In this document: positions 15,048 through 30,397 of the stretch, piece by piece
How the letters are laid out: each line of letters starts with the position of its first letter
How positions within the stretch are numbered: the stretch's first letter is position 1
Source of the DNA: Heterostelium album PN500
Taxonomy: Eukaryota; Evosea; Eumycetozoa; Acytosteliales; Acytosteliaceae
Assembly (NCBI RefSeq): GCF_000004825.1
Contig: NW_008805085.1
Span: 1 to 64,000 of the forward strand
DNA length: 64,000 nt
Direction of reading: 5' to 3'
Made by a program: the position numbers and the translations under genes
The notes under the pieces: model-generated
The model's database searches: none
What the model was told of the DNA's origin: nothing
What the model saw: only the letters and a program-made list of their open reading frames with translations

Positions 15048-15275
15048 ATGCTAATTCGTAAGTATTTCTCATTAAAATTTTATAGTTTAATTAAAATTAC
15101 TAATATATTTTTTTTAAAAATAGAATCTTTAAAAAACCTTTCATTCAACTCTTCTTCTGATTTACTAAGCTCTAGTTACTCTAAAAATGTTTCGCATTCC
15201 TCATCAGTAAATGGAAGCCAAACAACAACTCAAACTACTGCATCTTTTTCCAAACCATTCTGGGCAGCATGGTAA
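15048..15275 (+). CDS. F-W-x-x-W microprotein 1 (53 residues)
   Basis: Member 1 of a local family defined here. Exon 1 (15048-15057) is ten bases: ATG, CTA, ATT and one base; donor GTAAGT at 15058. Exon 2 (15124-15275) follows an AAATAG acceptor. The spliced protein starts MLIQSLKNLSF, is Ser/Thr/Asn/Gln-rich in the middle, and ends FSKPFWAAW. There is no signal peptide, no Cys and no predicted membrane segment. The intron is 66 nt, divisible by three and free of stops, so an unspliced transcript would also give a protein with a hydrophobic N-terminus; comparison with the sister genes, whose start and phase agree, favours splicing. Function unknown. Confidence 0.7.
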   Translation: MLIRKYFSLKFYSLIKITNIFFLKIESLKNLSFNSSSDLLSSSYSKNVSHSSSVNGSQTTTQTTASFSKPFWAAW

Positions 15276-15604
15276 TTTTAAAATAGAACTAAAATATAAT
15301 ATTTATCTTAAAAACAAAATTAAAATTTATTAAAATCAACGATTTATTTCATATGACTGGATAAATTATTAATAAAATATTTATTTATTTAATTTAATCA
15401 TATAAATGTTTTTTTATATAATAAATCTTACATTCTAAACAAATATTATGATGAAACTTTATATTTCTTTAATATTAAAAAATATTAATTAATGATTTTA
15501 TTATTAATAAATAAAATTAATTTACAAAATTCATATTGATACTTTGTAGAAATCGAATCTTTTGTTTTAATACAAAAAATATATTAAATGTTATTTTTTA
15601 GATT
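15276..15604. other. Convergent spacer between microprotein genes 1 and 2
   Basis: Very AT-rich, 330 bp; shared 3' flanks. Nothing else seen. Confidence 0.5.
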
Positions 15605-15834
15605 TTACCAACATGTCCAAAAAGCTTGTGTCCATGGAGTTTTAGTTAATTGAGTATTGGTTTGATTAGTTGCGCTATTTATTGATTGATTAAAAGAGGA
15701 ATTCAACTTATCGCTATTATTGTTTGGTTGAACTGAAAGATTCATAATAGATTCTATTTAAAAGAAAAAAAAATAATTAGTTCTAAAATTTTAAAAAATA
15801 ACTAAGAGTTAAAAAATTACTTACTGATTAACAT
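15605..15834 (-). CDS. F-W-x-x-W microprotein 2 (52 residues)
   Basis: Second member of the family, convergent with the first. Exon 1 (15834-15825) is ATG TTA ATC plus one base, with a GTAAGT donor; exon 2 (15753-15605) follows an AAATAG acceptor. The spliced protein begins MLIKSIMNLSV, has an Asn/Gln/Ser/Thr-rich middle, and ends WTQAFWTCW just before the stop. The N-terminal block aligns residue for residue with member 1, and the intron lies at the same place and phase (phase 1 of codon 4). Only members 2 and 4 have Thr after F-W. Function unknown. Confidence 0.72.
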
Positions 15835-16986
15835 TTTAGAAAGATTAAGTTTAGAGATATAGTTTTCTTGATTAAGTGTAGAGAAGTGATTGGATTTGGG
15901 TATGAAAAACTAGTATTTATATTTTTCTATTTGGACATGAAATTTGATGATCATCAATAGTCCGTTCAAGAAGTAAACATATCAGTTAATGTGGATGGTA
16001 TAGTAGTAAATGAGGATCTCATTTTTATTGAATTTTAATAGATTTCCAAACAACATTAAACAATTTTATTGAAACTGTTTATAATATGTCATTTGTGTTT
16101 TATTTAATCAATATTGGTATATTTCTATATATTGGTATTACCTATTTAATAATCAATTCTTCAACCCCATTCCAAAATCAAAAGAAAATTCACAATAATG
16201 GATATCTGTGGAGTGTATGTTCAACAAACACACATGTTCAAAAATCAACCACAATCTTGATCGTTGTTTTGGGTGTATTGTTTTTAATGATATTTTATAA
16301 ATTTAATCAATGATTTGATCATTTTAACAGTTCCAATTATATTGTTCATATACCAATAAACTATTCCAATATAACGATTGTTAAAAAATCCAAAAAACAA
16401 ACTTATTTATATATTTGATATTTGTTTTTAATAATAGTGGTTGAATTTAATTAGGAACCTAAATAAATATTGTTACTATTACACATTACTAGCTTGGTTT
16501 TTAATTCCAATATTGTAAGGATGGACAATAATAAGAATTTCTCAAAAAATTGATAATCAAATTACCATGTTTATCGCCAATGTTGTTCTATTTTACCCCT
16601 CAAATTGATTGGTTTACTTGAGAGGAATAAATGGTTTTGTGATGTCACAAATAGATTTAGATTTATTTAACCTAAATAATTCATTAATAAATATTTAATT
16701 CATTGCACAAATAAATTTGAAAAACAAATTAACATTTATTATTTATTGTTTTTGATTAAAATAGAAAAGGAAATAAATATAGAACTAGATCTATTTTTGT
16801 TTTATATTAGGATAATAAATAAAATAAAATAAATTAATTTTTATTTTAATTGTTTTTATGTTGTTTAGGTTGTACATTTTTTGATGATTTTGAATTTTAT
16901 ACAGGCTTCTATAATTAAATATTTTTGTCGACATAAATATTTAATTTTTAGATTATAAATGGAATCACATATATATATATAATGGG
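15835..16986. other. Intergenic stretch with one doubtful small frame
   Basis: About 1.15 kb. It includes the promoter of microprotein 2 on the left and a 75-codon frame described separately. An imperfect inverted repeat around 16330-16388 (TTTTAACA... and ...TGTTAAAA arms) follows that frame and could fold as a hairpin. The rest is AT-rich without visible features. Confidence 0.45.
16086..16313 (+). CDS. Doubtful small two-helix membrane protein
   Basis: A 75-codon frame beginning with a real ATG. It would have a hydrophobic segment at residues ~5-24 and another at ~56-71, separated by a polar loop with a Cys. Composition is only weakly coding-like, no intron is needed, and no family is recognised. 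Frames of this length occur by chance in such AT-rich DNA, so this may be nothing. Confidence 0.25.
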   Translation: MSFVFYLINIGIFLYIGITYLIINSSTPFQNQKKIHNNGYLWSVCSTNTHVQKSTTILIVVLGVLFLMIFYKFNQ

Positions 16987-17227
16987 TTACCAAACGGACC
17001 AGAATGGTTTAGAGAAGCTTTGAGCTAGAATTTGATTGGATGTCTCAATACTTGTATTGGTATTACTACCTGATGTAGTGTTGATTTTAATTTCACCACC
17101 ATTTTGGGTAGATGATTTGAACGAAATATTTTTTAAAGCATCTAGATAATTTTGTAAAACAAATTAATAATTCAATTTTTTTTATGTTGACATTTAATTT
17201 ATATCTCAATCACTTACTAATTAACAT
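16987..17227 (-). CDS. F-W-x-x-W microprotein 3 (54 residues)
   Basis: Third member. Exon 1 (17227-17218) is ATG TTA ATT plus one base with donor GTAAGT; exon 2 (17141-16987) follows acceptor ATCTAG. The protein starts MLINALKNISF and ends SFSKPFWSVW; the last ten residues are nearly those of member 1 (FSKPFWAAW). The middle is Asn/Thr/Ser-rich. About 150 bp upstream of the start the minus strand carries TATAAAAGG, a good TATA element. As in the other members there is no signal peptide or membrane helix, so a cytosolic or nuclear peptide exposing an aromatic C-terminus is the simplest picture. Function unknown. Confidence 0.73.
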
Positions 17228-18236
17228 TTTTGATAAAATTTATTTTGATTTTTTAAATTAAAAATAAAAAAATTTAATGATTCAACTTAAAATTTAAATT
17301 AAATTAATGTTTTTTAAACTAAAAATAGTAATTTATGATGTTTTTGATTGATTAATTAAACTGATGATTTAAACTGATTTCTCGGGTTTCCTTTTATAGT
17401 TGGATGAAATTGAAAAACTTAACAAAAATAAAAATAATTATTCATGTAGAATCAGTCATTTTTTTTATCAAATATAAAAACAACAGATTGTGAATCAAGT
17501 GGTTTTTGATTTTTTTATTTATCTCTTTGATTTCAAAATAGAATCAAAAATAGGTTTAAATAAAGATATAGAGTTCAATCCTATTAAATTAATTAAAAAT
17601 TATATAATTCAATGTTGATGTCATATGACTGTTCGATAGGGACACTCGACAGTTTATGATATTTTCATTGGTCTATTAATAATTAAAAGACTATACTAAT
17701 GACACCATCATTTTTGTCTCCTTTGAATTTTCTAGACCCTAACTACTTTACTATTATTATTGTTTTTATTAAATAAAATGTTGATGTCAACATTTATTCA
17801 ACCATCTCTATAGGTAAGAGATATGATAATACAAAACTATATGTTGATGTCAACCTAATAGATGGTGGGAGTGTTGATGTCATCAATTGATTTACTCTCA
17901 TTACTAAGACCAGATTATAACTGCTCACACTATAAATGTAAAAAATGTTGACGACATCAAATGATTAATTCTTTAATTAAATTAAATAATTATTTAATTA
18001 ATTATTTAATTAAACTTTATTAATGTTGTAATTAAGAGATATGACATCATATCTCTAGAACCTATAATATTTCCGAATTTGATGACAACATCATCTATAC
18101 ATTTAAATTTAATTTGTTTGATTTTTTTGATCATTTTTATTATTTTACATAAACTTTAGTTTATTGGTTGAAGTTAATTTGGATTGTTGATTGGATACTA
18201 TGGAATAAATAATAAATATATGTACCGTAATATATA
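17228..18236. other. Spacer between microproteins 3 and 4 with TGATGTCA-type repeats
   Basis: About 1 kb. The left part holds the promoter of microprotein 3. From 17610 to 18090 it contains many copies of TGTTGATGTCA and close relatives (listed separately). No coding frame is supported. Confidence 0.6.
17613..17882. repeat. Array of four TGTTGATGTCA motifs
   Basis: The exact 11-mer TGTTGATGTCA occurs at 17613, 17779, 17842 and 17872, all in the same orientation, and a variant TGTTGACGACATCA follows at about 17946. The core TGATGTCA is one base from the palindromic CRE/bZIP site TGACGTCA. Spacing is irregular, so this looks more like a regulatory cluster or decayed repeat than a tandem satellite. 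Confidence 0.65.
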
Positions 18237-18651
18237 TTACCAAGGTGTCCAAAAAGTCAAAGACTTTGACAAAGAAGATGATGAGGGACTATTATTGTGC
18301 TCCATAACACCGGAACTATTTAATGATATTGTAAAATTAACATTGTTATTATTTGTTTGAGTTGTATTTGAAGTAGTTGTTGTTTCTGGTAATGTAGGAG
18401 TTTCTTTATTAGTTGTTGTATTTTCATTAAAAGAAATATCCTCAATATTGGTTGGATTATTTTTTTTCTTTTTTCTAATAGTCAAATTTTTTATATTATC
18501 TATAGTTTTTCCAAGATATTAAATAGATAGAATTTATATTAATAAAAAATAAATATAATATTAATAATAAAAATAATTAATTACCTATTAAGTTTATTTT
18601 GGATTTTGATCTAATTTTTAATTTGAATTTTGATTCTAATGGTTCAGTCAT
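18237..18651 (-). CDS. F-W-x-x-W microprotein 4, long form (109 residues)
   Basis: Fourth and longest member. Exon 1 (18651-18585) encodes 22 residues, MTEPLESKFKL... ending NLI, then donor GTAATT; exon 2 (18499-18237) follows ACTATAG. The junction is again phase 1 directly after Leu-Ile, and exon 2 starts DNIKNLTI, matching the block of the short members. A basic stretch (IRKKKKNN) and a Thr/Asn/Ser-rich region follow, and the protein ends LTFWTPW. Thus the two ends of the family are conserved while an N-terminal extension rich in Lys is added. The extension gives this member possible nuclear-localisation character (inference). Confidence 0.72.
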
Positions 18652-30123: not shown

Positions 30124-30397
30124 TTAGAATCCAAAACCACCACAACCACAACCACCATTAAATATATTGACATCTCCAAAGATGATAGCGTTAGTTCTTC
30201 TTCTTCCTCCTCTACATTGTTCTTGGTTAAAAGAATCTCCAATAATCGAACCATCAGAGATATTGATATCCTTGTTTGAAATGTTATTCTTTAAACAGGA
30301 AACATTGCCATGGGAAGAAATAGTTTCTATTTATAAAGTTAAAAAGATGTAGAATTTAGAATAAATAAATATTTTTTTACATACTGATAATAGTCAT
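30124..30397 (-). CDS. Small Gly/Cys-tailed protein with tiny first exon
   Basis: Exon 1 (30397-30385) is ATG ACT ATT ATC plus one base, donor GTATGT; exon 2 (30326-30124) follows an AAATAG acceptor. The 71-residue product starts MTIIKTISSHGNVSC and ends FNGGCGCGGFGF. The start and the Gly/Cys-rich end recall the very large dictyostelid families of small hssA/2C-like proteins, which are often prestalk- or development-specific. The exon design (short first exon, phase 1) is also the same as in the F-W-x-x-W genes at 15-19 kb, although the sequences differ. A longer shadow frame on the same strand in another phase is not supported. Confidence 0.65.

What the first reader, a model, noticed from the sequence alone, without database searches (positions are those of the whole stretch)
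15048..18651. Cluster of four microproteins with MLI-x start, phase-1 microexon and F-W-x-x-W end
Seen: four small genes within 3.6 kb, on both strands, all split by an intron in phase 1 right after Leu-Ile. In three of them exon 1 is just ten bases. Block 1 is MLI-x-[SA]-[LI]-[KM]-N-[LI]-S-[FV], and block 2 is the C-terminus FWAAW, FWTCW, FWSVW or FWTPW directly before the stop, with FSKP before it in two members. The middles are unrelated Ser/Thr/Asn-rich sequence. Keeping both ends and the splice site while the middle drifts means selection on the ends. I know of no named family with this signature. A free aromatic C-terminus suggests a docking motif for one common partner (inference).
Basis: partly seen in the sequence, partly recalled or inferred. 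Interest (0 to 1): 0.78.

Follow-up and report, generated by a model that had tools for sequence, protein, structure and literature searches.

The report
Slime-mould microproteins with aromatic tails
Four tiny neighbouring genes of a social amoeba belong to a family of at least 22 genes that keeps a known dictyostelid gene layout (a ten-base first exon) but ends in a new F-W-x-x-W tail, so they look like a new branch of a known but poorly understood class of small proteins rather than something wholly unknown.

Summary
All four spliced genes are at the stated junctions, and GenBank models of Heterostelium album PN500 match two of them letter for letter. The genome holds at least 22 such genes: 21 of 22 have a 10-base exon 1, 22 of 22 a phase-1 intron and a TAA stop, and 18 of 22 a strict F-W-x-x-W end. 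Eight recent copies show protein-level constraint (dN/dS 0.25).

The layout is not new. It is that of the sigN/hssA small-protein superfamily, where 89 of 96 D. discoideum genes have a 13-base exon 1 (PMC2257962). In H. album, Pfam-recognised hssA-type genes use 13 bases (7 of 12) or 10 bases (4 of 12). The middles are not wholly unrelated: a weak, collinear [QED]-S-x-N block is shared with hssA-type and other micro-exon proteins.

The FWxxW tail is new here; three protein searches returned it from H. album only. Best reading: a lineage-specific branch of the superfamily with a kept head and an exchanged tail, probably disordered developmental microproteins whose aromatic end binds something. 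Expression and function are inferred.

The parts
15048..15057 (+). gene W1 (PPL_03651), exon 1, 10 bases: MLI + 1 base
15124..15275 (+). gene W1 exon 2; 53-aa product ends SFSKPFWAAW-TAA
   Evidence: identical to GenBank model P0004
15825..15834 (-). gene W2 (PPL_03652), exon 1, 10 bases
15605..15753 (-). gene W2 exon 2; 52-aa product ends FWTCW-TAA; a relative on contig C9 (PPL_07994) also ends FWTCW
17218..17227 (-). gene W3 exon 1, 10 bases
16987..17141 (-). gene W3 exon 2; 54-aa product ends SFSKPFWSVW-TAA; holds the ETSNQ middle block
18585..18651 (-). gene W4 exon 1, 67 bases; ...INLI before a phase-1 intron; Met-Leu start absent
18237..18499 (-). gene W4 exon 2; 109-aa product ends LTFWTPW-TAA
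17616..18049 (.). five TGATGTCA/TGACATCA words upstream of W3 (candidate control element)
   Evidence: word picked after a k-mer scan
30385..30397 (-). fifth micro-exon gene in the window: 13-base exon 1 (MTII + 1 base)
30124..30326 (-). its exon 2; 71-aa product MTIIKTISSHGNV...GDSFNQEQC...GGCGCGGFGF: hssA-like head and Cys/Gly end, with the DSFNQ block also seen in FWxxW genes
   Evidence: no Pfam match

Best explanation
The four genes are members of a family of at least 22 genes in Heterostelium album PN500, and that family is a divergent, lineage-specific branch of the dictyostelid sigN/hssA (2C/7E) small-protein superfamily. The branch keeps the superfamily's micro-exon, phase-1 intron, short N-terminal head and, in many members, a [QED]S-x-N middle block. 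It has an F-W-x-x-W C-terminus, usually after Pro, where hssA-type proteins have a Gly/Cys-rich tail. Shown: gene structure, family size, protein-level constraint, shared gene architecture, weak collinear sequence similarity. Inferred: common descent rather than convergence; expression during multicellular development; and the mechanism, in which a short disordered peptide presents an exposed C-terminal aromatic clamp (F-W...W-COOH) to one partner or to an aggregation-prone surface, the head being the family-common part and the tail the specific part. A precedent for such a division of labour is SRCP1, an 88-aa protein of the same broad class in D. [quoted passage not shown]
For: Twenty-two members; exon 1 is 10 bases in 21 of 22, phase 1 in 22 of 22. 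Of 12 PF05710 (hssA-type) genes in the same genome, 7 have a 13-base exon 1 (MTIL|x), 4 a 10-base one (MLI|x) and 1 was not resolved (exons picked by me among candidate acceptors), so the two lengths interchange within one family. 89 of 96 D. discoideum sigN-like genes have the 13-base exon (PMC2257962). Profile comparison of 15 of the 22 FWxxW proteins with 10 hssA-like ones (7 of them the strict PF05710 set): E 7.7e-5, probability 62%, residues 1-43 against 1-38 in register. 0 of 100 column-shuffled controls reach the score in each of four set-ups, including against the 7 strict PF05710 sequences alone. In 7 of 7 further micro-exon proteins tested, [QED][STG]-x-N lies in residues 25-48 (shuffled mean 0.6, max 5 in 20000); [QED]S-x-N in 6 of 7. 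Protein-level selection: dN/dS 0.25 over 28 pairs of 8 recent copies; 0.46 for W2 with its C9 relative, 0.26 for W1 with W3.
Against: None of 9 FWxxW proteins scanned matches PF05710 at E <= 10; 7 match nothing, and W4 and L086 have only unrelated hits below cut-off. Against strict PF05710 sequences the profile match is weak (E 0.0034, probability 9.5%), and against the 13-base subgroup weaker (E 0.045, not reaching the first 9 columns). Ser/Asn-rich sequence favours spurious matches, and the middle block was chosen after seeing it. One diverged pair (L082/L083) has dN/dS 0.97. Expression and function were not seen. AlphaFold2 gives no fold (mean pLDDT 58, pTM 0.12, 3 sequences). In D. discoideum, six genes of the class knocked out one by one (PMC8554618), and deletion of all sigN Group 1, Group 2 or both groups (PMC2257962), gave no developmental phenotype.
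Confidence: 0.7

Rival explanations
1. An unrelated, newly arisen H. album family that acquired promoter, micro-exon and first residues of an hssA-type gene by duplication (exon capture); the rest is de novo sequence.
For: No PF05710 match; tail and most of the middle are alike only inside the family; no relatives returned from other species; profile match to strict PF05710 weak.
Against: The similarity extends past exon 1 in register, including the middle block; with block 1 removed the score against the hssA-like set still exceeds all 100 middle-shuffled controls (16.2 against a maximum of 11.2; this set includes three proteins outside the strict PF05710 set).
Confidence: 0.18
2. Same superfamily, but secreted or vesicular cohesion peptides rather than docking or anti-aggregation peptides.
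For: SigN antibodies stain small vesicles in mound cells, and Group 2 antibodies make mounds disaggregate (PMC2257962, section 16).
Against: The FWxxW heads are short and show no obvious signal peptide (by eye, untested); sigN deletions have no phenotype.
Confidence: 0.2
3. The conserved ends serve the RNA rather than the protein: hssA was reported to work even when frame-shifted, so these may be regulatory transcripts.
For: PMC6198379 reports that frame-shifted hssA still suppresses a culmination defect (passage).
Against: dN/dS 0.25 in recent copies and near-saturated synonymous sites in both end blocks; tail codons vary synonymously.
Confidence: 0.05
4. The F-W-x-x-W end is not the C-terminus: TG|GTAA is a splice donor and a third exon follows, as some GenBank models have it.
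For: GenBank proteins PPL_06302, PPL_06307 and PPL_11874 read FWAVC..., as if spliced at TG|GTAA.
Against: G follows TAA in 0 of 22, against G at that place in 20 of 22 first introns. The model extensions are unrelated to each other. L042, L048 and L083, which lack Trp before the stop, end at the same place. PPL_03651, PPL_03652 and PPL_07994 stop at the Trp.
Confidence: 0.04
5. Head and tail are membrane-interface anchors rather than a docking motif.
For: Aromatic C-termini suit membrane interfaces (general knowledge, not from a call).
Against: As a helix the head is no more amphipathic than shuffles of itself (19-62% of shuffles reach it, over all 22 members). AlphaFold2 shows only a 4-residue helix.
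Confidence: 0.1

Closest known systems
sigN / hssA / 2C / 7E small-protein superfamily of Dictyostelium (Pfam PF05710 'Coiled'; PMC2257962, PMC6198379)
   Same: Two exons with a micro-exon 1 (13 bases there; 10 or 13 in H. album), phase-1 intron, clusters on both strands, similar short head, Ser-rich middle, [QED]S-x-N block, group differences at the C-terminus
   Different: No PF05710 match; 52-61 aa in 21 of 22 (W4 109) against 87-89 aa for the 13 closest sigN genes; no Gly/Cys tail; ends in F-W-x-x-W; returned only from H. album
SRCP1 (88 aa, D. discoideum; placed in the same large class of small proteins by PMC8554618)
   Same: Short, Ser-rich, no identifiable chaperone domain, C-terminal domain said to be the working part (PMC8741877, passage)
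   Different: Its sequence was not compared here; its tail is described as pseudo-amyloid; activity on aggregates untested for FWxxW proteins
57-59 aa prestalk small proteins of D. discoideum (DDB_G0283421 to G0283519 group, PMC3640940, passages)
   Same: Size; reported as not similar to hssA; neighbouring gene numbers
Other micro-exon small proteins of H. album (L036/L098, L037, L054/L055/L102, L089, L094, L097; the MTIIKTISSHGNV type in the window)
   Same: Same kind of micro-exon head and middle block
   Different: Other ends: ...KPTTRFF / KPSTHFF, ...PRWYN, Cys-rich, ...AWCIW, ...SLWWF, ...GGCGCGGFGF

Membership tests
sigN/hssA superfamily (architecture sense, PMC2257962) | Two coding exons, first one a micro-exon (13 bases in 89 of 96 D. 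discoideum genes), phase-1 intron | tested here: met
   10 bases in 21 of 22, phase 1 in 22 of 22; H. album PF05710 genes themselves use 13 (7 of 12) or 10 (4 of 12), 1 unresolved. Length is 10, not 13
sigN/hssA superfamily (architecture sense, PMC2257962) | Small protein (<120 aa), genes clustered | tested here: met
   52-109 aa; 4 genes on C24 within 3.6 kb, 11 of the 13 on C30 within 261-284 kb; the other 5 lie on five other contigs
sigN/hssA superfamily (architecture sense, PMC2257962) | Sequence similarity to hssA-type proteins | tested here: inconclusive
   hhalign E 7.7e-5 to the hssA-like set, 0.0034 to the strict PF05710 set; 0 of 100 shuffles reach either
PF05710 (Coiled) | Score above Pfam gathering cut-off (21.4 bits) | tested here: not met
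   No PF05710 match for 9 of 9 FWxxW proteins scanned, of 22, at E <= 10
PF05710 (Coiled) | Gly/Cys-rich C-terminal half | tested here: not met
   22 of 22 end in FWxxW (18) or a one-residue variant (4)
sigN/hssA superfamily (architecture sense, PMC2257962) | Developmental, mostly prestalk or cup-cell expression | not testable with these tools
   No RNA data held; six PPL_ locus names occur in no paper of the library
SRCP1-like anti-aggregation protein | Suppresses polyglutamine aggregation through its C-terminus | not testable with these tools
   Needs an assay

The most novel reading that the evidence does not exclude
H. album runs a constant-head, swapped-tail repertoire: one micro-exon head plus [QED]S-x-N block has been joined to at least six tail types (FWxxW, AWCIW, SLWWF, TRFF/THFF, Cys-rich, Gly/Cys), several converging on aromatic C-termini. 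FWxxW would then be a new C-terminal binding motif read by a dictyostelid partner, for instance the client-recognition tail of SRCP1-like mini-chaperones.
Probability: 0.3. Interest if true: 0.72.

Novelty: new variant of a known kind. Interest (0 to 1): 0.45.

Why it matters
The hssA/sigN class has nearly 100 genes in D. discoideum, with some of the most highly expressed late cup-cell genes among them (PMC6198379, passages), yet its function is unresolved and deletions of single genes or whole groups show no phenotype (PMC8554618, PMC2257962). A review speaks of Group 4-specific small peptides of this family (PMC8067170, passage); here Pfam-recognised hssA genes and an expanded sister branch occur in a Group 2 species, so the class may predate the Group 4 cell types. 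The branch shows which parts are kept (head, middle block) and which are exchanged (tail). A defined five-residue C-terminal signature turns an open question into a direct pull-down or aggregation test.

Tried and rejected
Amphipathic-helix head: rejected, hydrophobic moment no better than shuffles. Structure: AlphaFold2 gave an unstructured low-confidence chain, so no fold search was made. PDB profile search: 0 matches at E <= 10. Pfam: no PF05710 match for 9 FWxxW proteins. Third-exon reading of TGGTAA: rejected. A match of W1's intron region to contig C25: no ATG with a 10- or 13-base exon and a GTAAGT/GTATGT donor in the 3 kb locus, taken as AT-rich chance. Of the 6 hits outside the family, two (C3:2795, C33) were read and are not members; the other four (C6, C7, C10, C32) were not fetched. 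GTTGATGTCAWY is not enriched genome-wide (63 against 58 in the control), although the core TGATGTCA lies within 1 kb upstream of 13 of 17 FWxxW genes examined (5 of 22 with short flanks left out) against 2 of 13 other micro-exon genes. That word was chosen after a k-mer scan, so Fisher p = 0.0025 is flattering. L041/L052 was saturated at synonymous sites and gave no ratio. First exon-2 starts were off by one base and were corrected. No gene tree was built: 50-residue sequences hold too little signal.
Full report
WHERE IT IS. The window lies on contig C24 of a 32.93 Mb, 39-contig genome. A protein search returned W1 and W2 as PPL_03651 and PPL_03652 of Heterostelium album PN500, identical letter for letter to my spliced products. 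PPL_ genes are those of Polysphondylium pallidum (passage of PMC8808424), a Group 2 dictyostelid (passages of PMC5114724; taxonomy of H. album PN500).

CHECKING THE OBSERVATION. Splicing at the stated junctions gives W1 MLIQSLKNLSF...SFSKPFWAAW, W2 MLIKSIMNLSV...FWTCW, W3 MLINALKNISF...SFSKPFWSVW and W4 ...INLIDNIKNLTI...LTFWTPW. The introns are 66, 71, 76 and 85 bases and phase 1. W4 departs: its exon 1 is 67 bases, it lacks the Met-Leu start, and its donor is GTAATT. Genome-wide, the exon-1 pattern and the tail patterns are each well above their reversed controls: 24 against 5, 12 against 0 and 24 against 7.

THE FAMILY. Patterns, one protein search (18 matches, all of them members) and short fetched stretches gave 22 members: 4 in the window, 13 on contig C30 (11 of them within 261-284 kb), and one each on C3, C9, C14, C35 and C38. 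Eighteen of 22 end strictly in FWxxW. The variants are FWNVC, FWAVL, FYAVW and FWTIF. All 22 stop at TAA. First introns are 64-85 bases, one 127. A TATAAA word lies within 250 bases upstream of the ATG in 21 of 22, in AT-rich sequence and without a control. Eight recent C30 copies give pooled dN/dS 0.25 (28 pairs). Four more distant pairs give 0.46, 0.26, one saturated and one 0.97 (L082/L083). Across 14 diverged members the two end blocks have near-saturated synonymous change with low non-synonymous change. So it is mainly the protein that is kept, and the ends most.

IS THE TRP-STOP A SPLICE DONOR? TGGTAA looks like one, and GenBank proteins P0001, P0002 and P0005 read as if it were used. 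G follows TAA in none of 22, whereas 20 of 22 first introns have G at that place. The model extensions are unrelated to each other, and members without Trp before the stop (L042, L048, L083) end at the same place. I take the stop as real.

LINK TO A KNOWN CLASS. In D. [quoted passage not shown] the two studied groups differ mainly at their C-termini (PMC2257962, sections 13 and 16 and passages). hssA genes are described the same way (PMC6198379, passages). PF05710 finds 12 hssA-type matches in H. album, all over the cut-off, and none in 14 control genomes. Seven have MTIL|x with 13 bases, four have MLI|x with 10 bases, and one (L080) was not resolved. [quoted passage not shown]

MIDDLE BLOCK. 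Fifteen of the 22 FWxxW proteins and 10 hssA-like proteins align in register from the start through [QED]S-x-N (E 7.7e-5, probability 62%). Three of those 10 are not in the strict PF05710 set: L033 and L055 score below the Pfam cut-off and L054 was not scanned. With only the 7 strict PF05710 sequences the match is weaker (E 0.0034), with the 10-base subgroup 0.0012, and with the 13-base subgroup 0.045. In each of four shuffle controls 0 of 100 reach the observed score, and with block 1 removed the score is above all 100 shuffles. The block is present in 9 of 15 non-redundant FWxxW members (6 of 15 in a strict form; shuffled means 1.2 and 0.6); absences include L042, L081, L083 and L086.

A LOOK BY EXON 1 ALONE. 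The pattern ATGYTNWTHVGTAWGT has 45 sites (control 21). I assign by eye 19 to FWxxW, 5 to hssA-like, 9 to other small proteins and 12 to chance; C24:620335, counted as chance, is doubtful. Of the 9 others I tested 7, leaving out two near-copies of one: 7 of 7 carry [QED][STG]-x-N in residues 25-48, 6 of 7 [QED]S-x-N (shuffled means 0.6 and 0.3, maxima 5 and 4 in 20000). Their ends differ widely. In all 9, aromatic residues in the last five positions total 12 against 3.6 in shuffles (P 5e-5), but L036/L098 and L054/L055/L102 are paralogues, and I had seen both patterns before testing them. The window itself holds a fifth gene of this kind at 30397-30124 (minus strand), with a 13-base exon 1, a DSFNQ block and a Cys/Gly end. 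It has 21 further genomic matches at E <= 1, not inspected, and no Pfam match.

OTHER SPECIES. Three searches of 5.8 billion proteins returned only H. album (8, 6 and 8 proteins at E <= 1, 10 and 1). The search needs shared 5-residue words and depends on annotated small proteins, so absence elsewhere is suggestive only. I found no mention of these genes in print: six PPL_ names gave 0 papers, and searches on hssA, sigN, small proteins and Polysphondylium listed none on this signature among the titles and passages that I saw. Supplementary files were not searched.

HOW IT MAY WORK. No fold is predicted and the head is not a convincing amphipathic helix. A short chain, probably disordered, with a kept, free F-W-x-x-W end suggests binding through the tail. 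[quoted passage not shown] review passages, PMC8578527). A second precedent points elsewhere: SigN antibodies stain vesicles and one set disperses mounds, while deleting whole sigN groups does nothing. Expression is unknown; relatives are prestalk or cup genes in part, but 7E and 2C are called non-cell-type-specific and one of six studied genes was prespore. A TGATGTCA word upstream of 13 of 17 FWxxW genes examined, against 2 of 13 other micro-exon genes, may be a shared control element, but it was picked after the fact.

VERDICT. A true and well-seen pattern; the signature is half known (head and micro-exon) and half new (tail). New variant of a known kind.

Noticed in passing
window 30124-30397, minus strand: A 71-aa hssA-like gene with a 13-base exon 1 and Cys/Gly end; 21 other genomic matches of this MTIIKTISSHGNV type at E <= 1, not inspected.
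   Followed up: partly
G000 contigs C2, C4, C7, C16 (L069-L080): Twelve PF05710 (hssA-type) matches over cut-off in a Group 2 dictyostelid, where a review speaks of Group 4-specific peptides of this family.
   Followed up: partly
window 17616-18049: Five TGATGTCA/TGACATCA words in about 430 bases upstream of W3; the word is also within 1 kb upstream of 12 of the 16 other FWxxW genes examined.
   Followed up: partly
L094 (C9:1260100-1260800): 48-aa micro-exon protein ending QQSTNNIAWCIW: hssA-like middle block running straight into a W-x-x-W end; may be an intermediate.
   Followed up: no
GenBank models PPL_06302, PPL_06305, PPL_06307, PPL_11874, PPL_06254, PPL_02306: Gene models that run on past, or splice out, the family's conserved tail; probably annotation errors.
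   Followed up: partly
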